Source: Chromera velia (taxonomy: Eukaryota; Sar; Chromeraceae). Taken from it: a stretch of 23,810 nucleotides of DNA. The DNA lies in the NCBI GenBank assembly GCA_018398765.1, contig JAHBMJ010000622.1:20001-43810 (forward strand), given 5' to 3'. Below the pieces are notes generated by a model, which saw nothing but the letters and a program-made list of their open reading frames with translations, searched no databases and was not told the DNA's origin. This document shows, one piece after another, positions 3,825 to 22,707 of the stretch (the first letter of the stretch is position 1; the number at the start of each line of letters is the position of its first letter). Position numbers and translations under genes: made by a program.

Positions 3825-4009
3825 CATCTTCAAGCTGCGTAAGTCCCTCTGTTGACTCGGCCACTTGAGCTCAAAAGTGATCCAAGACTGTGTTTGCTTG
3901 ACTCCGTTCATCTCCCTTAATTTGAAGGATCAGCGTTTCCTCCTCTCGTTCGGACAACAACACAGAAGAAGTCGGACTGTCACAGTGCAACACCTCTCGC
4001 TTTGTCAAC

Positions 4010-5703
4010 ATGAAGGTGAAGTGCAACTACAACAGTCAACACGAAGAGTTTGACTTCGATGAGAAACTGCCTCTGGCAGATCTTCGCCTCAAGATCAGAG
4101 AAACGTATCAAGCGAAGCCAGGACATGGATTCAAGCTCTTCTACAAAGATCCTGAGGGAGACATGTGCACCCTCACTGAGGGCACCTATCAGGATGCGAA
4201 GGCTCTGGCGATTGCCCGGAAGGAGGATCCCTCTCTCCAGTTGGTTCTCAAACTCGACAAGGACGCCTCCCTCCGCATTGCCAAGGAAACCCTCTCCAGG
4301 ACTCTCAAGACTCTCGAGGGTGAAGGGCTCCGAGGCCTTCTCAACAACGTCGGTCAAAGAAGCAGTCAAAAACGTCACAAGTCCATTTGTAGGTGCACCT
4401 GTTGCGCAAGTGCAAAAGTGTTGTTCTTGAAATAAAAGACCCCAAGACACCGCAAAAAATCGTTATCAGCAGGCTTACTTTGACTCCGGAACTGTAGGCG
4501 ATCTTTTCGATCTTCGTTTGTGCGCTCTCTCTCGTTCTCATCTCTTCCAACGCTCAACTCTGATTCACTTGTCCCGTGTCTAGTCCTGTTTTACATGTCC
4601 AGAAGCCCCCCCAGCTCTTTATTCAGAGTCTGAGAGCTTGAAAGACACTTTCTGCAAAGATCTAAGGTGTTCTTGACAGTCAACAAGAGAAATGGAGACG
4701 TTGAAGAGAAAAGAGGATTGATCAATGGACAATTGATGGCCTAAATGATCCAAAATGTCTCTTTTCCTTCCTTCCTTCCTTCCTTCCTTCCTTCCTTCTT
4801 TCTTTCCTTCTTTCCTTCTTTGCTTCCTTCCTTCCTTCCTTCCTTCCTTCCTTCCTTCCTTCTTTCCTTCTTTGCTTCTTTGCTTCCTTCCTTCCTTCCT
4901 TCCTTGTTTGCTTCCTCTCTCTCTGCAGTTCGTCAAGAAAGGATGGCCTGCCATGGTCGAGCAGCTCGAGCGTCTGCTTGGCATGATGGGAGAGATGAAA
5001 GACGGGGAAGACTTCGAGGAGATGTCCCACAAAATGGAGAGGAAGTTTATCTTCGCTGTAGTCATCCAGACAGAAGCACACGAAGACATGGTGGAAGACC
5101 TCCCCGGTGCCGAATTCTTTAAAATGCTCAACATGCGCAAGCTGCCCATTGCTGCACTGATCAATGCCATCATGTCACCTCTGCTAAAGTTCTTCGAGAG
5201 CTTCTCTGGCGGGGACGGCAAATTCAAATCCATCCTTCCCCTCCTCAGAGCCCTTGTGAAAATCACAGACCCGGACACAGTCTCAACTCTGAACAACGCC
5301 TTCCAAGTCGCCGATAAGCTGAAGGATGTGAGCGAGGATGAAAGACTGAAGGCCATGGGTCGGTTCTCATTTGTCGAATTCTCTCTTTCTGTCCTTTTTC
5401 GGTATTGTATTTGTTGCTTGAGATACCTTCATGGATGGATTGGTTCCTCGCTGTTGCTTGCATCAGCGATCCTCTCGTTGCTCCCTCATCGTTTGCTTTT
5501 CCCATTCTTTCCTTTCATTTTGCCATTCAAAACAAGCCTTGCCGCCGAGGTTCTGCAGGCGAACAAACCCAACAAGCTTGTCAAGGATTGGCGTGCTTTT
5601 CCATTCCCACCAACTTTCCTTTCTGCTTGCTTTCCGTGCTTCTTCCACCCCTTCCCGTATTTGTCTCGGACTTGCTTTCCCTTCCTTGCTTCTGTTTGTG
5701 TAG

Positions 5704-5736
<33 letters not shown>

Positions 5737-8700
5737 ATGTGCAAATAACAACAACGCGTTTGCAGAGGCGAAGCTGAAGGACGAGAAGCTGATCAAGATC
5801 ATGAGGAACGTGGTGAACTCTGAGGGCGGCGTCTTCTGCGTGTTGGAGCCTGAGTACAAAGACCACGTCAAGGCCATCGAGCCCGCACTGCAGGACCTGG
5901 TCAAGCTGTCGGAGTCTGAGGTGGCCCCCCTGGGGGACGCGGTTGCTGAGGTCATCCAGAAAGTCATCAAGATCGCTGTGGACAAATTGATGGGACAGAT
6001 GGCCTGGAAAGTACTCAGTCAGTCCATAGACGGATCGAGGGAGGAATTGACAGAGAAGTGCATCGGTCGACACATAGACAGACAGGTGCAAATATGCAGT
6101 TAAGCATGTATAGATGCATCCATGGATAGATGGATGGATGGATGGGCATAGAGGTACACGGATAGACAGGACCGAGAGATGGATGAACGGATGGACTCAA
6201 TGACAGACAAGTGGGTAGACGTTCACAGAAGAAGATGATGGATTCACGGATAAATACTCAGATAGACAGGTGGATAGATGATGGACACAGACGCCAACGG
6301 ATAGACAAATTCATACATAAAATTCCATCCACTTCTCGTACTCATACACAAACAGACGATCGATGCATTGGGGGCCTGGGGATCCGGTCATGTCTGCCTA
6401 ACTCTTTGTCCTCTTTCTCCCTTTCTCCCTCCCTCCCTCTCTCCCTCCTTTCCTTTCTCTGTCCATCCGAGTCTGTCCGATTGTCGACCAGTCCGTCAAT
6501 TTGTGTGCAAGTCGAATTGTATGTGCAATGGCTGTCTTGCCGCGTTCGCTTTCTGGTCGCCTATGACAGACGTCTTTGTTTCTGTTTCCTTCCTTGTGAA
6601 TTAAATGTTTGTGCACAGCAATCAGCTCCCCGTGCTCCCGCGTCCCCCCCCCCCCCCCCNNNNNNNNCCCCCCTGTGCAGTCCGTATGGTTGCCTTCGGT
6701 TTGATGATGGCGGCTGAGGCCATCAAGTCGAACTCATGGCTCTCTCCCATGGTGTGCGAATACCTCAAACTCGACTGCGATCCCGAGAAACCAGCAGATC
6801 CCAACTGGAAGGTGAGCCGCTGTCTGTCTATCTGTATGCATGTGTGGGCATTTATGGGCCTGTGTAGGTGGGTGTAAGGGTTGGGTGTACGCCTTTGTGC
6901 GTGTATGGATCAGACTGTGACTAGGCCCCTTTGTTTCGTTTCTGCTCTCTCTCGCACAGACTGTGTGGGTGGACCTTCCTTGTCTGTCGAGTTTTCATTT
7001 CCTTCTGGATCGACCCCTGCATGATTGGATTCGTTTCATTCTTCTGAGTTCTTTCTATCAATCTCACCCAGATATGCTTGCCCATACCCATAGTAGGGAG
7101 AGTTATTTCGTCAGCACAAAACAACACAATACCCTCTGTGCTCATGCATGCATCATGTCGGAATGATTTGCAGCCCGGTGCGTTCACCCCCCTCGCCCAG
7201 AGCATGTTCCAGGGCATGAAGGAGTGTCTTCAGCAGGCCCCCAAGACAGACGGGGAGGAGGGATTCTTCGACGACCAGATCACGGGGCTGGAACTCTTCT
7301 ATCAGGCATGCAACACTGGCGACTTGCCGGTCAGGGGGTGGGAGGGCGGGAAGGCTTGGTTCAAGAGTGGCAGGGGATGCACGATCGCGTGTACAGCGAG
7401 AAAGCGGGTGATGATGAGAGAGAGAAAGACAAAGAGCGAAGGAACCAGAGAGAGGGCGATGGGGCGGAAGAGAGATAGATGTCGAAAGAGAAAGTTTTGG
7501 CCCAGACGCGCACTGCAGAAAAAAGAAGTACTTAAGCACACACATACCATAAAATGGCTGACGTGCTCCACACGCTGCCCGCTTCTCTCTCCTTCCCCCG
7601 CTCCCTTCCTTTCTCTTCCTTGCAGGTCGACGAGCCCTCTCAAGACCTTCTGGGGGAGCTTATTGCTGACACATTCACAAAGGTAGGGGGGGGGGAGGGT
7701 GGAGGAAGAAGTGCAGGGGGGAAGGAAGGGAGCAAACTGTGGTTGTTTCTTTTGTGGAATGCTCTGTAGAGTTTCCCGTCATATTTCCCGCCTCTCGGAG
7801 ACGGCTTTTTCCTTTTTGTACGCCTTTATTCCTGTTTTCTCTTTCTCATTCTCTTTCTCTTTCTCCTCCTCTCTCTCTTCCTCTCATTCTCTTTCTTCTC
7901 TCTAGGAGAGAGAGAAAGTGAGAGTCTGTATGAGTGTCCTGATTGCTGGCGGTGTTTTGCCAGGCGGGAATGCGCTCTCCATGCATCAGCAGAGCATCTG
8001 TCCCTACCTGTCTTTTCTTTTTCTCTCAAGACGCTCGTGTCCCCCCCACGTGAAAGAAAATATTTTGCAGATCGCTGAGCCTCTGACTGAATGGGCAGTC
8101 CAAGAGGACATCGACAGGAGCGAGGCCGTTGTGCGGACTATGCTCGAGAGGGGCCTGGCTTTCTTCATGGAACTTTCTCCCGTCGTCGTGCCTGCTGCTG
8201 CAAAGGCGACAGGTGCGTCTCGATCGTGAAGCAGAAAGAAAGAAAGAAAGAAAGAAAAGGCGGTTGGCTGTTCTTCAGAGACATGAATACCCATGTATGG
8301 TTGGCTGGGGCATATTTGAACGATGAATCCAGATGGAACATAAGAAAAGGATAATAGACAGTCCTTCTTGAATAGATATAGAAATCTATTGAATGACTGT
8401 TTGATAGAAATCAAAAAGGAACGAAAGTAACTATGTCTCTCTCTCAGTTGCTGTTCCTTCTGTCTCTCTGCTCAAAAGAGGAGAACAGGAAAAAAAGCAC
8501 TGCATGTATAGCTCTGTCTGTGTGTCTCACCTTCAGGGGTCATCTCTTTGCCACGACAGATGCACGCACGCATGTACTTTTACTTACACATACGTCTCTC
8601 TACATGCATATCTGACTGTCCAACCTTGCATGCATCATGTGCAGCCCACGACTCGACAAAGGCGGACAAGACGACCGAGGCGTCCTCTGCTGAGAAGGTC

Positions 8701-9237
8701 CAGCTGCTGATGAGTTTGGGATTCGACGACAGGAAGAAAGTCGAAGAGGCACTCGAGGTAGGTGCGTATGTAGGTCGGCTGCTTGCTTTGATTCATGTCT
8801 GAGCAAATCATCGCCCCCATGCATGTCTCGAGTGCCCTTTTTGCTTTTCTGTCCTGACCTGTTCCATTCGATCTGTCGCTATCCCCTGCAGACGGTACCA
8901 GTCCATCTGCAAACACATACAGAGAAGTCACGAGTCCGTATTATTCTCTTGGGGTGTCTGACGGAGGCCCTTTGTTTCTTCTGCCTCACATACATTCTTA
9001 ATTCCCTCCTAACAGGTGCGCTCTCTCTGTGCGGCTCTGCAGCCCAAGCATAAATGGTGGCTGTCTTTGTGATAAAGATTCTTTCATTCTGCATGACCCT
9101 GCGCTTCCCCCTCCCCCCTGCAGGCTCGACACGGCCATGTGAGATCTGCAGCCACGACCCTCGCGAGCATGCACATGGCAGACGCGGCTGCCTCCAAGGG
9201 CAAAGTGATACGCATGAGGAGCGCAGTGAAGGAGTAG
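4010..9237 (+). CDS. PB1 and UBA domain protein, p62/NBR1-like layout
   Basis: Nine exons: 4010-4388, 4929-5358, 5766-6017, 6681-6811, 7174-7329, 7626-7682, 8071-8212, 8645-8757, 9124-9237, ending TAG. All introns are GT-AG and seven of eight joins keep phase. The first needs a one-base correction in exon 1, so the length is about 590 residues. Residues 1-82 form a PB1 domain: basic beta-1 (MKVKCNY) and an OPCA-type acidic loop (YKDPEGDMCTLTEGTYQDA), so both PB1 faces are present. Residues about 127-515 are mostly helical and match no family I know. Residues about 532-572 are a UBA domain (LLMSLGFDDRKKVEEALE, then ARHGHVRSAATTLA) split by the last intron. PB1 domains oligomerise or pair, and UBA domains bind ubiquitin; together they suggest a ubiquitin-dependent scaffold or autophagy receptor. 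ZZ and FW domains are absent. FCVL or FKML could be LIR motifs, but this is weak. Confidence 0.85.
4764..4928 (+). repeat. (TTCC/CTTT)n tract forming the 3' end of PB1-UBA intron 1
   Basis: About 155 bases of TTCC repeats with TTTC and TTGC variants run to a CTCTCTCTGCAG acceptor at 4928. The tetranucleotide array itself serves as the polypyrimidine tract. Frames across it (Ser-Phe-Leu-Pro repeats, or Lys-Glu-Gly-Arg on the other strand) are not real genes. Confidence 0.85.
5704..5734 (+). repeat. (CA)n microsatellite in PB1-UBA intron 2
   Basis: About 15 CA units lie 31 bases before the TTTGCAG acceptor of exon 3. Confidence 0.9.
6115..6330 (+). repeat. Degenerate GATA/GATG/GACA array in PB1-UBA intron 3
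   Basis: Imperfect GATAGATG, GATGGATG and AGACAGAC units fill the 5' half of the 663-base intron (6018-6680). Confidence 0.7.
6644..6673 (+). other. Poly-C tract containing an 8-base assembly gap
   Basis: Sixteen C, then eight N (6660-6667), then six C, ending in TGTGCAG at the exon 4 acceptor. The true length of the homopolymer is unknown. The gap is wholly intronic, so it does not affect the protein. Confidence 0.95.
8231..8258 (+). repeat. (GAAA)n microsatellite in PB1-UBA intron 7
   Basis: About six GAAA units start 20 bases after the exon 7 donor (GTGCGT at 8213). Confidence 0.85.
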
Positions 9238-10346: not shown

Positions 10347-11273
10347 TCACTTGGCCTTGGAAGAGGACGCCCTGACTAGCGCCCTGATCATGCAGACCTC
10401 TGCCGCCAGAATTCCAAGAGGAGTGCCGGTGTAGATGGCGATGAGGGCCTGCCCACTGAGGGTGTGCCGGAGCCCCACAGCCGCCACCAGCATGACGACC
10501 CGAAAGGCCAAGAAGGAGCCCCACATGGCGCCGTAGTAGCGCGCCATCCATCTTTGGTGAGTCTTGATGTCCTTTTGAATGGCGTAGTAGACTCCAATCA
10601 ACAGCGGGGCGATGGTTTGAATGACCATAGCGCACCATCCATACACAGCAAAGTTTGCACCGTAAGAGGGAATGTCTGCAGAGTCGAGGCCGAGCTTCTG
10701 AGCCTGACCGAGCCCAATGAGAGTGCACATAGTCACTGCATATCCGCTCCATCGATGCAGCGTGGGATATGCACGTCGAGTAGGTTGGTGAAATTGAATG
10801 AACGATAAAACGAGTGCAAAGGTAGAGAACCAGATATGCACGTACAGTTGCACGCGAAGAGATTCCGGCCCATGCTTGAATCTCTTATAGAAGTCAACAG
10901 CCCAGTTAGGGTGATACGAGAACCAGTCCAATTCCGAACAGGTGTCTACTCGTCCTTCCACCGAAGCGCAGGGCTGCACGCCATTCAAGTCCTCAGCAGA
11001 CATAGCGCTGAGGCCGAGATTGAGCGGAAAGTCGTAGATTGCGGTGAACCAGGCGATTTGCTTTGGAGCATCACCTACCAACCCGTACTGGAGGTTGACA
11101 ATCATGACGACGATTGTGAGGAAGGCGAATGCACCATAGGGCATCTTTCTTTGGAGAGCGCCCCGACAGAGGAGACCGATGCCTCCCACCAGGGAAAGAT
11201 AGATTCCACCAACAGAAAAAAGTGTAGAGGAGGTCATGACGAGAAAGCACGGAGGAACGGGATGAAGAGACAC
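10347..11273 (-). CDS. DUF2306-type multi-pass membrane protein
   Basis: A single uninterrupted frame of 308 codons ends with TGA at 10347-10349. The start may be Met1 (11273) or Met13 (11237). About seven hydrophobic segments fall near residues 13-37, 46-66, 143-161, 176-192, 206-231, 247-267 and 275-297. A hydrophilic loop (about 83-140) with three Cys (102, 112 and upstream-spaced) separates the second and third. Family hallmarks are a His in the third segment (H146, VHIWFS), TLHRWSG (H173) and KDIKTHQRWMARYYGAMWG (H239). The last matches the D..H..WM.R motif that I associate with the bacterial and fungal DUF2306 family (PF10067). Function is unknown; the spaced His residues could bind haem or metal, which is speculative. 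Lack of introns contrasts with both flanking genes. The 3' end converges on the PB1-UBA gene. Confidence 0.85.
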   Translation of the reverse strand: MSLHPVPPCFLVMTSSTLFSVGGIYLSLVGGIGLLCRGALQRKMPYGAFAFLTIVVMIVNLQYGLVGDAPKQIAWFTAIYDFPLNLGLSAMSAEDLNGVQPCASVEGRVDTCSELDWFSYHPNWAVDFYKRFKHGPESLRVQLYVHIWFSTFALVLSFIQFHQPTRRAYPTLHRWSGYAVTMCTLIGLGQAQKLGLDSADIPSYGANFAVYGWCAMVIQTIAPLLIGVYYAIQKDIKTHQRWMARYYGAMWGSFLAFRVVMLVAAVGLRHTLSGQALIAIYTGTPLGILAAEVCMIRALVRASSSKAK

Positions 11274-12459: not shown

Positions 12460-13950
12460 AGATATGAGCAGAAGCCGTTTGGGCCTGTAGATAAAGCTAG
12501 GTAAGCAAGTGTGTGAACAGAAGCTGTTTGGGCGTGTGGGTGAATGTTTGGGCGTGTGTGGGCTAGCGTGTGAGTACACGGGCATGGAAAGAAAGTGTGT
12601 GCAGTAACAGAATCCGCTTAGGCCTGCAGGTGGATGAATGAAGAGAGACGGAGAGAGTAAGCATGTTTATGAGGATGTATGAGTTTATGAACAGAAGCCG
12701 TTTAGGGGTGCGGGCAAGACAAGGAGAACGAATATGTAAACAGAAGCCGCTTGCATGGGCCCGTAGATGGATGAAGAGAAATCAATTGTGTGTCATTGAA
12801 GAAAAGTCGCTTGGGCCGCTGGTTAGGCCTATGGATGAATGAAGAGAGATCAACTGTGTGAACAGAAACATACAGAAGCCGCTTGGGCCTGTGGATGTCA
12901 TTGAGTGAAGAGAGTCTCAGATAGGGAGAACGAGTGTGTGAACAGAAGCCATTTGGGCATATGGGTGAATGAAAGGAGAATGAAGGGAGAAAAGGAGATA
13001 CAAGGAGAGCGAGTATGTGAACAGAAGCCGTTTGGGCGTGTGGGTGAATGAAGGGAGAAAAGGAGATACAAGGAGAGCGAGTGTGTGAACAGAAGCTATT
13101 TGGGCGTGTGGATAAATGAAGGGAGAATGAAGGGAGAAAAGGAGATACAAGGAGAGCGAGTATGTGAACAGAAACCGCTTGCCAATGGGCATGTGGGTGA
13201 AGAAAGAGAGACAAAGAGAACGAGTATGTGAACAGAAGCTAGGAACAGGAGCCGTTTGGGTCCATGGATGAATGAAGAAGGATCAATTGTGTGTCATTGA
13301 ACAAAAGCTGCACGAGCCTATGGCTAGGTCTATGGATATAATAAATGAAGAGATATCAAGTGCGTGAACAGAAGCCGCTTGGGCCTGTTGATGAATTAAG
13401 AGAGACAGGGAGAGCGAGTGTGTGAACAGAAGCCGTTTGGGCGTTTGGGTGAATGAAGAGAGATAAAGAGATACAAGATGAGCGAGTGTGTGAACAGAAG
13501 CTGCTTGGGCCTCATGCAGTGAATCAATGAAGAATAATGAAGATTGAGAGACATGGAGAGCGAGTGTGTAAATAGAAGCCGTTTTGGATGTCACAACAGT
13601 GTAGGTGAATGAACACCGACAGGGAAAGCAAGTGTATGAAGCGGTGTGAGCAGGCTAGGTGAAGAGGAGCCGTTTAGGCGTGTGGGTGAATGAAGAGGGA
13701 CAAGGACTCGCACAAGCATGTCAAGTTGTCAACAGAAGATGTTTGCATAGGTGTGTGGGTACCTGAATAAATAGAAACAGCCTGTCACTAAAAGAGAATG
13801 AGATTGAGTGTGTAAACAGAACTTCAAGCTGCTAGGGCCTGAAATAGAAATAAACGAAGAGAGATAGAGAGAGCAAGTGTATGAACAAAAGCCGTTCAGG
13901 TATGTGGATGTGAGAGTGTTAATAGAAGCCGTCAACTTTGGGCATGTGGG
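12460..13950 (+). repeat. Degenerate minisatellite, core GAACAGAAGCCGYTTGGGC
   Basis: About 22 copies of a core close to GTGAACAGAAGCCGTTTGGGC recur at spacings of roughly 60-80 bases, starting near 12466, 12515, 12605, 12690, 12868, 12938, 13018, 13088, 13166, 13366, 13425 and 13493 among others. The spacer between cores is also conserved: GTGTGGGTGAATGAAG, then GAGA(T/C)A, then GGAGAGCGAGTGTGT. Several cores are diverged or carry short insertions. Array units are not a constant multiple of three, so the long minus-strand frames across it (12702-13214 and others) are by-products. Confidence 0.85.
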
Positions 13951-16039: not shown

Positions 16040-18430
16040 CCTGTCTGTCTGTCTGTCTGAGTTGTCGTGATGTTCTTTTGTCTTTGTTGCTTTCTTTCTT
16101 TTTGTCTATTGTGTTCATAGTCTGTCTGTCTGTCTGTAGGAGAAAAAGGGAAAGAAAAGACGATATAGTCTGTCTGTAGAAAGGAAGCGGTTCGGAAAGT
16201 AAAGTGAAGAAAAGACCATATAGTCTGTCTGTCTGTCTGTCAGTCATGTACATGAAGAAAAGAAGGGAGAAGAAGAAACATATAGTCTTTCTGTCTGTCT
16301 GTGCGTTTTTTTTTTCATTTTCCTCTCATCTCTCGTTGCTGCATTGCGCCGTGAAATTCCTTTCTGCCTGCCTGCCTGCTTTCAAAGTGACTGTTGAATG
16401 AACTCCATGTGAGTGAGTGAGTGAGTGAGTGAGTGCAGCCCCCCTGACGGTCAAGAAGGAGCCAGGAACAGACTCGACTGGAGACGTCATCATGGGTGAT
16501 GGTCAGCTTCCCTCCCTCTTCGTTCCCCCCCCCCCCTCTGTCTGTCTGTCTGTCTGTCGTGTGGTCGGTGTATGAGAGACAGGGCATGGGCGGTCTATCT
16601 GTTTCTTATCCTCGTGGCAGCTTCCGAGCCTCTGCGTTCATGCCGGCTGACAACTGCGGCCGGAAGGTTCTTCCCCCAAAGCTTCGTGAGGCTATCTGGC
16701 TCCGAATGATCAATGAGCGCTCTCCCGATCCTCTCATGTCCTCTCCTGTACGCAGCTGATGACGAGAACGCGAATCGCGTCTCCAACAGAGGCAGCCAGA
16801 GAAACCGCGGGGTTGACAAGGAGGATGACTTTAGAGGAGGGCCCCAACTGATCCAGAAAGGAGGGGGGGCAATGTCGGGGGGGGGGCGTGCCCCTCGGAC
16901 GTTCTTTGCCCGTCGTGAGTTTTCTCTCACGATCCGGATCATGGAGGAGAAGGGAGAAGGGGAGGCCTACTGCCGGTTCCGTTGCTACCGAGACGCGCAT
17001 GCCTGGCGAGACGAATTGATCCGACAGGTCCCCATCAAGATTGACATCGGGGCTGTGTACAACGTGCCCGTCAGCGAGAAGGATGCACTTGCAGGCAGAT
17101 TCCGTCCAGTGGAGAAGGTCAGAGAGAGAGAGACTGAGAAGCCGTGAATTGTTCCACTGTGAGAGAGAGAAGAGAGTCAAGCGGAGAAGGATCACAAGGA
17201 AAAGGAATGAAGAAAACGAAGTGCATCGAAACTGTCTCTGGACTCTCCGTGTGTGGACTAAGGCACTGCTGTCAAATGGTGACTTTGCCAAATAGAAAAC
17301 AGCCAGACAGACAGAAAGAGGCAGGGAAAGAAAAAGATGCTCCGCGTCTTTCCTCCCGTGTCCGTATGTATGTGCGTAGGCGGAAGAAAAGATCGTAAGC
17401 TTGGATATCGATTACTCCAGTGCAGGTTTTGTACGCATACTATGAGTGCACATTGTACAAAGTATGACCATACCACACACACTCTGTGTGTGTCTGTGCA
17501 TTCTTGAACTTCTGTACAGGAGATGATCTTCGATATCGATATGACGGACTACGACGACATCCGCACCTGCTGCTCCGAAGCGAACATCTGCCACAAGTGC
17601 TGGCTGTTCATGACGGTGGCCGTGAAGGTCCTCAACTCTTTCCTCAGAGGTCAGTCCGGAGAGGGGGGGAGAGGTCAGATAGAAAATGCAGAGAGATGGA
17701 ATATGCGGGTGTCGCGCAGCGAGAGAGGCGGTCAGTGAGAGATACAGGCGCGGACCGGCATACGTTCGCCCTCGATTGAAAAGGACGGCCCTTCAATTCC
17801 CTTCGTGAATTTCTCCTGAGCCGGTGATGGCCTTTTGGTTTTCTCCTCTGCTCTTTGTCTCACTGTTTGATGCACACTTCCCAATTCCGGCTTTGAGTGA
17901 CAGTTTCTTTCACTGTGTGTTTGTCGCTCTTCCTCCTCCTTATTCTCCTTCTGTGTTGTGTGTATGCATGCAGAGGATTTCGGATTCCAGAACCTGATGT
18001 TCATCTACTCAGGGCGGCGTGGTATCCATTGCTGGGTCTGTCAGTGGGTCTCTCTATCTGTCTATCTTTCTCTTCCTTCGTTGTACCTTCTCTCGCGACT
18101 GTGGCTCGGTCTCTTGTTCTTTGTTTCCACTTCATTGTTGCTCATCTCTTCGTCTTTGTGTTCCTCCATGCGGTACGGCTCCGTCTCCGCCTTTTCCTCA
18201 ACCTCTCTCGTTTCTTGCCCCAGTCGTTTGAGGCCTTGTGTTCCTTCCAGCCTTTTCCGCCGACCACTCCTTCTCACACTTGAAGAAATAACTTGGAATG
18301 AAATGGAATGAACTGCAGATCTCGGATCCTAGGGCAAGGCACATGGCAAACGAGTCACGGAATCAGGTCGCAGACTACCTCAACGTTCTCTCTGTCAGCC
18401 CTGCCTCTCTCTCTCTCTCTTTGTGTGTGT

Positions 18431-22252: not shown

Positions 22253-22458
22253 ACGCACCGTCATGTGGTGTCGCACTGCACCACATTGGAGCAGTTGACG
22301 AATGGAAACACTCGCATCTCTTCATGCAAACTCGTGAATCGCAATTGAATTCTGCACGTCTTGAGCCCCTCCATCTGTGTGTGTGTACTCGAATGATTCG
22401 AATCGCATCGTTTGGTGTTGGTGAGCTAGTTGGTGAGGTGGTTGAATCCGATAGCCGA

Positions 22459-22707
22459 GACTGGATATCAGAAAATCTTTAATAGAAGACATATCTACTA
22501 TATTGCAGCGTGGGTCTTAAGTAGCTTCGACTTTTTAGACTGGATATCAGAAAATCTTTAATAGAAGACATATCTACTATATTGCAGCGTGGGTGTTAAG
22601 TAGCTTCGACTTTTTAGATGTATGTCAGACTGGATATCAGAAAATCTTTAATAGAAGACATATCTACTATATTGTAGCGTGGGTCTTAAGTAGCTTCGAC
22701 TTTTTAG
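22459..22707 (+). repeat. Three direct copies of a 79-bp unit
   Basis: Units begin GACTGGATATCAGAAAATC and end TAGCTTCGACTTTTTA. They start at 22459, 22538 and 22628; the third is offset by an 11-base insertion. Between copies I see only single-base differences (GCAGCG against GTAGCG, GTCTTAAG against GTGTTAAG), so the duplication looks recent. The array begins about 205 bases after the primase stop and marks the boundary with AT-rich island 3. Confidence 0.95.

What the first reader, a model, noticed from the sequence alone, without database searches (positions are those of the whole stretch)
4010..9237. Minimal PB1...UBA protein: a possible p62/NBR1-like receptor without ZZ or FW domains
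Joining nine exons gives an N-terminal PB1 domain with both a basic beta-1 and an OPCA acidic loop, and a C-terminal UBA domain. In animals and plants this pairing defines p62/SQSTM1 and NBR1, selective autophagy cargo receptors. Here the ZZ finger, FW domain and a clear LIR are missing, replaced by about 390 residues of mostly helical sequence I cannot place. It may be a stripped-down or independently assembled ubiquitin receptor.
Basis: partly seen in the sequence, partly recalled or inferred. Interest (0 to 1): 0.7.

Follow-up and report, generated by a model that had tools for sequence, protein, structure and literature searches.

The report
PB1–UBA ubiquitin adaptor gene
A nine-exon gene of a eukaryote (probably a chromerid alga) appears to encode a protein with a docking domain (PB1) at one end and a probable ubiquitin-binding domain (UBA) at the other, laid out like the autophagy receptors p62 and NBR1 but lacking several of their defining features, so it is best seen as a variant adaptor whose link to autophagy is unproven.

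Summary
The observation largely holds. Window 4010-9237 (+) can be read as one nine-exon, 577-residue protein with a PB1 domain (Pfam 27.1 bits, cut-off 23.6) and a C-terminal UBA (21.9 bits in the full protein, 0.5 below cut-off; 25.8 in the last 75 residues). All nine exons score as coding in the modelled frame. No transcript was available, so the exon 1-2 join is inferred.

The p62/NBR1 receptor reading is only partly supported. ZZ and FW were not found, LIR motifs are at chance level, and the double-arginine finger that p62 and plant NBR1 need to polymerise is two glutamates here. By one published definition (FW plus PB1 or ZZ) it is not an NBR1.

A second PB1 gene in the same genome has the lysine and both arginines. 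Best guess: a heterotypic adaptor, the UBA holding ubiquitinated cargo and the acidic PB1 loop docking on a partner PB1. PB1+UBA combinations are already reported for protozoa, so this is a variant of a known kind.

The parts
4010..4348 (+). exon 1: start codon, PB1 domain, start of helical region (aa 1-113)
   Evidence: Pfam PB1 30.8 bits; coding score +0.13; in-frame donor AAC|gtcggt
4013..4180 (+). PB1 domain match (aa 2-57, profile 3-58 of 84)
   Evidence: same place in the whole-genome search, C621:24010-24180
4043..4048 (+). Glu12-Glu13 where AtNBR1 R19-R20 and p62 R21-R22 lie
   Evidence: alignments; role of the arginines from PMC6978347
4142..4162 (+). acidic OPCA loop Y45-K-D47-P-E49-G-D51
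   Evidence: Y45, D47, G50, D51 identical to p62 and AtNBR1
4929..5358 (+). exon 2 (aa 114-256), helical middle
   Evidence: coding score +0.15; acceptor ctctgcag, donor TGG|gtcggt
5766..6017 (+). exon 3, helical middle
   Evidence: coding score +0.25; splice sites
6681..6811 (+). exon 4, helical middle; begins 13 bases after a run of N
   Evidence: coding score +0.15
7174..7329 (+). exon 5, helical middle
   Evidence: coding score +0.34
7626..7682 (+). exon 6 (19 codons)
   Evidence: coding score +0.10
8071..8212 (+). exon 7, end of helical middle
   Evidence: coding score +0.13
8645..8757 (+). exon 8: linker and first part of UBA (8686-8757)
   Evidence: UBA 19.0 bits in this exon alone; 25.8 when joined to exon 9; coding score +0.28
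9124..9237 (+). exon 9: rest of UBA match (9124-9150), tail, stop codon
   Evidence: coding score +0.08, a tie with another frame that holds four stops

Best explanation
One gene encodes a 577-residue adaptor. Shown by sequence: an N-terminal PB1 with a full acidic (OPCA) face but a weakened basic face, a middle of unknown family with helical periodicity, and a probable C-terminal UBA. Inferred: the UBA binds ubiquitin on cargo or on a ubiquitinated partner. The PB1 acts mainly as an acidic (type A-like) plug that docks on the basic face of another PB1 rather than polymerising with itself. The candidate partner is the second PB1 protein of this genome, which carries the lysine and both arginines. 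The middle is a folded helical scaffold or cargo-binding region. It would thus work like metazoan NBR1 capping p62, a ubiquitin adaptor recruited through PB1, without being a member of either family.
For: PB1 and UBA matches. Gene coherence: nine of nine exons coding in the modelled frame, all eight introns GT-AG, and the UBA spans the exon 8/9 join, 19.0 bits in exon 8 alone against 25.8 joined. PB1 scores above 1000 of 1000 shuffles against p62 and against AtNBR1. OPCA conserved but RR replaced by EE. Second PB1 gene, C1763 minus strand: 46% identity over 46 residues, 36.9 bits after joining two exons, K11 and R19-R20 present. Requirement for the arginine finger in homopolymers: PMC6978347 (passages). 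Metazoan NBR1 has a modified, monomeric PB1 and caps p62 polymers: PMC9582228 (passages).
Against: No transcript, structure or binding data. The UBA is 0.5 bit below cut-off in the full-length scan; the C-terminus shows no helical periodicity; it resembles two UBAs of its own genome only weakly (20 and 277 of 2000 shuffles as good), though NUB1 and 1vg5, chosen because they were top PDB hits, beat all 2000. The exon 1-2 junction has several possible donors. Lysine 4 is kept, so some basic-face contact is possible. The second PB1 resembles p62 and AtNBR1 no better than many shuffles (261 and 189 of 1000 as good), its best PDB match is a designed protein and not a PB1 (E=0.0027), and whether it is co-expressed is unknown. 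The genome search reads exon by exon, so further PB1 proteins may be missed.
Confidence: 0.42

Rival explanations
1. It is a true selective autophagy receptor of p62/NBR1 descent that lost ZZ and FW; a non-canonical LIR or another ATG8 contact in the helical middle links it to ATG8.
For: PB1...UBA order as in p62/NBR1; PB1 similarity to p62 and AtNBR1 above shuffles; ATG8 exons in the genome; Atg19/Atg34 show that NBR1 relatives can lose recognisable domains (PMC9582228, passages).
Against: No FW or ZZ match and no LIR above chance; arginine finger lost, whose mutation abolishes autophagic turnover of p62 (PMC6978347, passages).
Confidence: 0.2
2. It works like a UBL-UBA proteasome shuttle: the beta-grasp N-terminus docks on a receptor, the UBA carries the ubiquitinated client.
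For: The beta-grasp, helical middle and UBA order resembles UBL-UBA shuttles such as ubiquilin or Rad23 (recalled).
Against: The N-terminus scores as PB1 with an OPCA loop; no ubiquitin, STI1 or XPC-binding family appears among the four families listed for the protein (HMMER's filters drop most matches above E about 0.1). The genome has 63 ubiquitin-like matches, and C2308 holds one on the same strand as a UBA, a better candidate shuttle.
Confidence: 0.12
3. A PB1 signalling scaffold whose UBA mediates dimerisation or another contact and not ubiquitin binding.
For: PB1 domains serve many pathways (PMC7051960, passages); the UBA is marginal, with Leu in place of Met in the MGF loop and one extra residue after it.
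Against: Some UBAs with LGF do bind ubiquitin (recalled); nothing in the middle points to a signalling domain.
Confidence: 0.16
4. Two genes wrongly joined: a PB1-only protein ending at 4433 and a separate helical-UBA gene from exon 2 on.
For: Exon 1 stays open to a stop at 4433; PB1 lies wholly in exon 1; the donor with the most consensus-like intron side, 4388 (gtaggt), is out of frame.
Against: The 40 bases past 4348 score non-coding in all three frames, a short stretch; the in-frame donor gtcggt is also the one modelled for exon 2; an acceptor precedes exon 2.
Confidence: 0.1

Closest known systems
NBR1 (plants, animals, protists)
   Same: N-terminal PB1 and C-terminal UBA; OPCA loop and beta-1 lysine conserved with AtNBR1
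   Different: no ZZ or FW match, no clear LIR; arginine finger is Glu-Glu
p62/SQSTM1
   Same: PB1 at the N-terminus, UBA at the C-terminus, no FW
   Different: no ZZ match, no LIR above chance, no arginine finger; p62 is reported only from metazoans (PMC9582228, passages)
PB1+UBA proteins of protozoa (Mutte and Weijers 2020)
   Same: PB1 combined with UBA (PMC7051960, section 7 read)
   Different: reported from Apusozoa, Amoebozoa and Excavata; sequences not compared here. For Chromista the paper lists Kinase, NBR1 and CBS families, and says the NBR1 orthologues there were multiple partial proteins, as in Protozoa (passages), so similar proteins may already be among them
UBL-UBA shuttle proteins (ubiquilin, Rad23)
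   Same: beta-grasp N-terminus, helical middle, UBA (recalled)
   Different: PB1 instead of UBL; no STI1 or XPC-binding match listed

Membership tests
NBR1 | FW domain (with PB1 or ZZ), the definition in PMC9582228 | tested here: not met
   no FW match listed for the protein or its middle
NBR1 | PB1 domain | tested here: met
   27.1 bits, cut-off 23.6
NBR1 / p62 | ZZ zinc finger | tested here: not met
   no match listed; no CxxC in the protein
NBR1 / p62 | C-terminal UBA | tested here: inconclusive
   21.9 bits in the whole protein, cut-off 22.4; 25.8 for the C-terminal 75 aa, where UBA_HOIP also passes, 24.7 against 22.4: likely, not clear-cut
NBR1 / p62 | LIR that binds ATG8 | tested here: inconclusive
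   9 core motifs against 8.1+-2.4 in 2000 shuffles, 1 extended motif against 0.87; binding cannot be tested here
NBR1 / p62 | homopolymerising PB1 (Lys, double arginine finger, OPCA) | tested here: not met
   Lys and OPCA present, RR replaced by EE; polymerisation itself not tested
p62/SQSTM1 | metazoan origin | tested here: inconclusive
   genome unnamed; its size is nearer to Chromera than to Vitrella as given in PMC4501334 (passages)
UBL-UBA shuttle | N-terminal ubiquitin-like domain PF00240 | tested here: not met
   not among the families listed; PB1 is
NBR1 / p62 | turnover by autophagy with ubiquitinated cargo | not testable with these tools
   needs experiment

The most novel reading that the evidence does not exclude
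The genome divides the p62/NBR1 job between two PB1 proteins. This one carries the ubiquitin-binding UBA and an acidic-only PB1. The other (C1763) carries the basic face with the double-arginine finger and a long low-complexity region. Only together do they form an oligomeric ubiquitin receptor, assembled independently of metazoan p62-NBR1.
Probability: 0.2. Interest if true: 0.62.

Novelty: new variant of a known kind. Interest (0 to 1): 0.42.

Why it matters
If right, it shows a reduced ubiquitin adaptor in what may be a close relative of the apicomplexans. A charge reversal at the one site known to control p62/NBR1 polymerisation makes a direct prediction: no self-assembly, pairing with a second PB1 protein. 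That would bear on how selective autophagy or ubiquitin triage works in lineages where a canonical NBR1 is hard to find.

Tried and rejected
Rejected: the exon-1 end at 4388. A ZZ, FW or STI1 domain recognisable in the middle. A PDB relative of the whole protein (2 chains at E up to 10, at 1.5 and 1.6), of the PB1 exon (best is dishevelled DVL-1, E=0.12; that this chain is its DIX domain is recalled) or of the C-terminus (best NUB1, E=0.074). p62 PB1 itself reaches AtNBR1 only at E=0.086, so such misses say little. Also without result: viral contigs (1 stretch matched a pattern, none confirmed); tRNA and Rfam scans (none); NCBIfam (one match at E=0.025, far under its cut-off). Absence of an FW domain in the genome cannot be claimed, since no control rang; the ZZ loci were not examined for PB1 or FW neighbours. 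Literature: in the held library no paper has both Chromera and NBR1, Chromera and 'PB1 domain', or NBR1, PB1, UBA and alveolates together. The 23 papers with Chromera velia and autophagy were seen only as a listing of 20. PMC10104450 on autophagy in protists was seen in passages, which name NBR1 once, as a host protein. A first training set of long ORFs was too noisy and was dropped. In one search minus-strand loci were read on the wrong strand; corrected, which used 14 of the 16 loci (L008 and L021 left out).
Full report
Place. The window is G000:C621:20001-43810 of a 177.8 Mb, 4040-contig genome. No call names it.

Gene model. Nine exons (4010-4348, 4929-5358, 5766-6017, 6681-6811, 7174-7329, 7626-7682, 8071-8212, 8645-8757, 9124-9237), all eight introns GT-AG, read as 577 residues plus a stop. 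With GT or GC donors from about 4260 to 4440 and three acceptors, 20 pairs open the frame into exon 2, none from 4388. I prefer 4348 because its gtcggt is also the donor modelled for exon 2 and because 4349-4388 scores non-coding in all three frames, though it is short. Upstream there is an in-frame stop at 3923 and no in-frame ATG between it and 4010.

Is it a gene? A codon score was trained on 14 ORFs (2649 codons) of loci with UBA, ZZ or ATG8 matches elsewhere in the genome, against trinucleotides of 19 of the 20 stretches fetched. It was positive for 9 of 9 exons in the modelled frame (0.08 to 0.34), the best of six frames for eight and tied for exon 9. Of the 24 intron frames, 23 scored below zero; the exception was 0.04. 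Random 113-codon stretches averaged -0.093 with a 99th percentile of 0.110. The training set is small, some ORFs may run into introns, the background holds some genes, and the short exons have no null of their own length.

Domains. PB1: 27.1 bits in the full protein, E=4.2e-6, cut-off 23.6. UBA: 21.9 bits, E=1.5e-4, cut-off 22.4; 25.8 bits with the last 75 residues alone, where UBA_HOIP also passes. The UBA match crosses the exon 8/9 junction; exon 8 alone gives 19.0 bits, so the join is supported by the domain. The middle (aa 114-502, 389 residues) matches no Pfam family at a meaningful level (best E=0.13). For aa 84-500 the hydrophobic moment at 100 degrees exceeds 300 shuffles by z=4.7, with no strand periodicity, while the PB1 region shows strand periodicity (z=2.7); the C-terminal 77 residues show neither (z=-1.5 and 0.2), which does not help the UBA. 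Beyond this, secondary structure was judged only by Chou-Fasman propensities.

Missing parts. No CxxC, hence no usual ZZ; 9 core LIR motifs against 8.1+-2.4 in 2000 shuffles; 1 extended LIR against 0.87.

PB1 faces. Aligned with human p62 and Arabidopsis NBR1, K4, Y45, D47, G50 and D51 are identical in all three. In that alignment K4 falls on p62 K13 because p62 has a longer first loop; the documented p62 lysine is K7. The spacing K-x7-RR-F of AtNBR1 (K11, R19-R20) is K-x7-EE-F here. Jakobi et al. report that the double arginine finger makes the main salt bridges to the OPCA loop, that its loss abolishes binding in AtNBR1, and that p62 R21A/R22A is diffuse and not degraded by autophagy; PKC-zeta, which lacks it, stays soluble (PMC6978347, passages read). 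So self-polymerisation is unlikely, though K4 leaves it open. PB1 similarity to p62 and AtNBR1 exceeded all of 1000 shuffles each.

Second PB1 gene. The PB1 search of the genome gave one match above cut-off, this gene, and at relaxed E a second place, C1763:9106-9228 minus, 22.5 bits. Fetched sequence shows an upstream exon (9412-9338) and a second exon from 9210, open to 7678; joined, PB1 scores 36.9 bits in the first 85 residues and 32.4 in 505 of the 536 residues read (the last 31 were not given to the call). It is 46% identical to ours over 46 residues, with K11 and R19-R20. The rest of the ORF is low in complexity, with no UBA match; sequence below C1763:7000 was asked for and not obtained. 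Its PB1 does not resemble p62 or AtNBR1 above shuffles (261 and 189 of 1000 as good), and its best PDB match is a designed protein at E=0.0027. This gene is the basis for proposing a heterotypic pair; nothing shows that the two proteins meet.

Setting. The genome encodes ATG8 (two exon matches on C39), at least 6 UBA matches above cut-off, 15 ZZ matches above cut-off and 63 ubiquitin-like matches. A canonical NBR1 was not found: FW gave no candidate, but no control rang, so absence is not shown, and the ZZ loci were not examined for PB1 or FW.

Comparison. Rasmussen et al. define NBR1 by FW plus PB1 or ZZ, find it in Alveolata among others, and confine p62 to metazoans (PMC9582228, passages read). 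Mutte and Weijers found protozoan proteins that combine PB1 with UBA (section 7 read) and, in Chromista transcriptomes, Kinase, NBR1 and CBS families, the NBR1 orthologues as multiple partial proteins (PMC7051960, passages). The layout is therefore not unprecedented; the glutamate pair, the long helical middle and the candidate partner PB1 are the new points as far as the searches go.

Verdict. A real, probably single gene for a PB1...UBA adaptor; the autophagy role is possible, not shown. New variant of a known kind, moderate interest.

Noticed in passing
G000:C1763:7678-9412 minus strand (L052-L054): Second PB1 gene with lysine, double arginine and acidic loop, followed by a long low-complexity region.
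   Followed up: partly
window 10347-11270 (-): ORF with a DUF2306 membrane-protein match (35.3 bits, cut-off 31.6).
   Followed up: no
window 17508-18311 (+): Exons of the DNA primase small subunit (Pfam 51.2 and 26.9 bits, cut-off 26.8; PDB primases E down to 2.8e-16).
   Followed up: partly
G000:C39 (L002, L003): ATG8 in two exons; the reading frame runs on by about ten residues past the region where the conserved glycine is expected (its position is recalled), so a C-terminal trimming step may be needed (translation).
   Followed up: no
G000:C2308:3224-8288 (-): A ubiquitin-like match and a UBA match on one strand within about 5 kb: a candidate UBL-UBA shuttle gene.
   Followed up: no
window 12925-13173 and 22458-22707: Tandem repeats with units of about 68-79 and 79-90 bases.
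   Followed up: no
window 6660-6667: A run of N inside intron 3, 13 bases before exon 4; the assembly is uncertain there.
   Followed up: no
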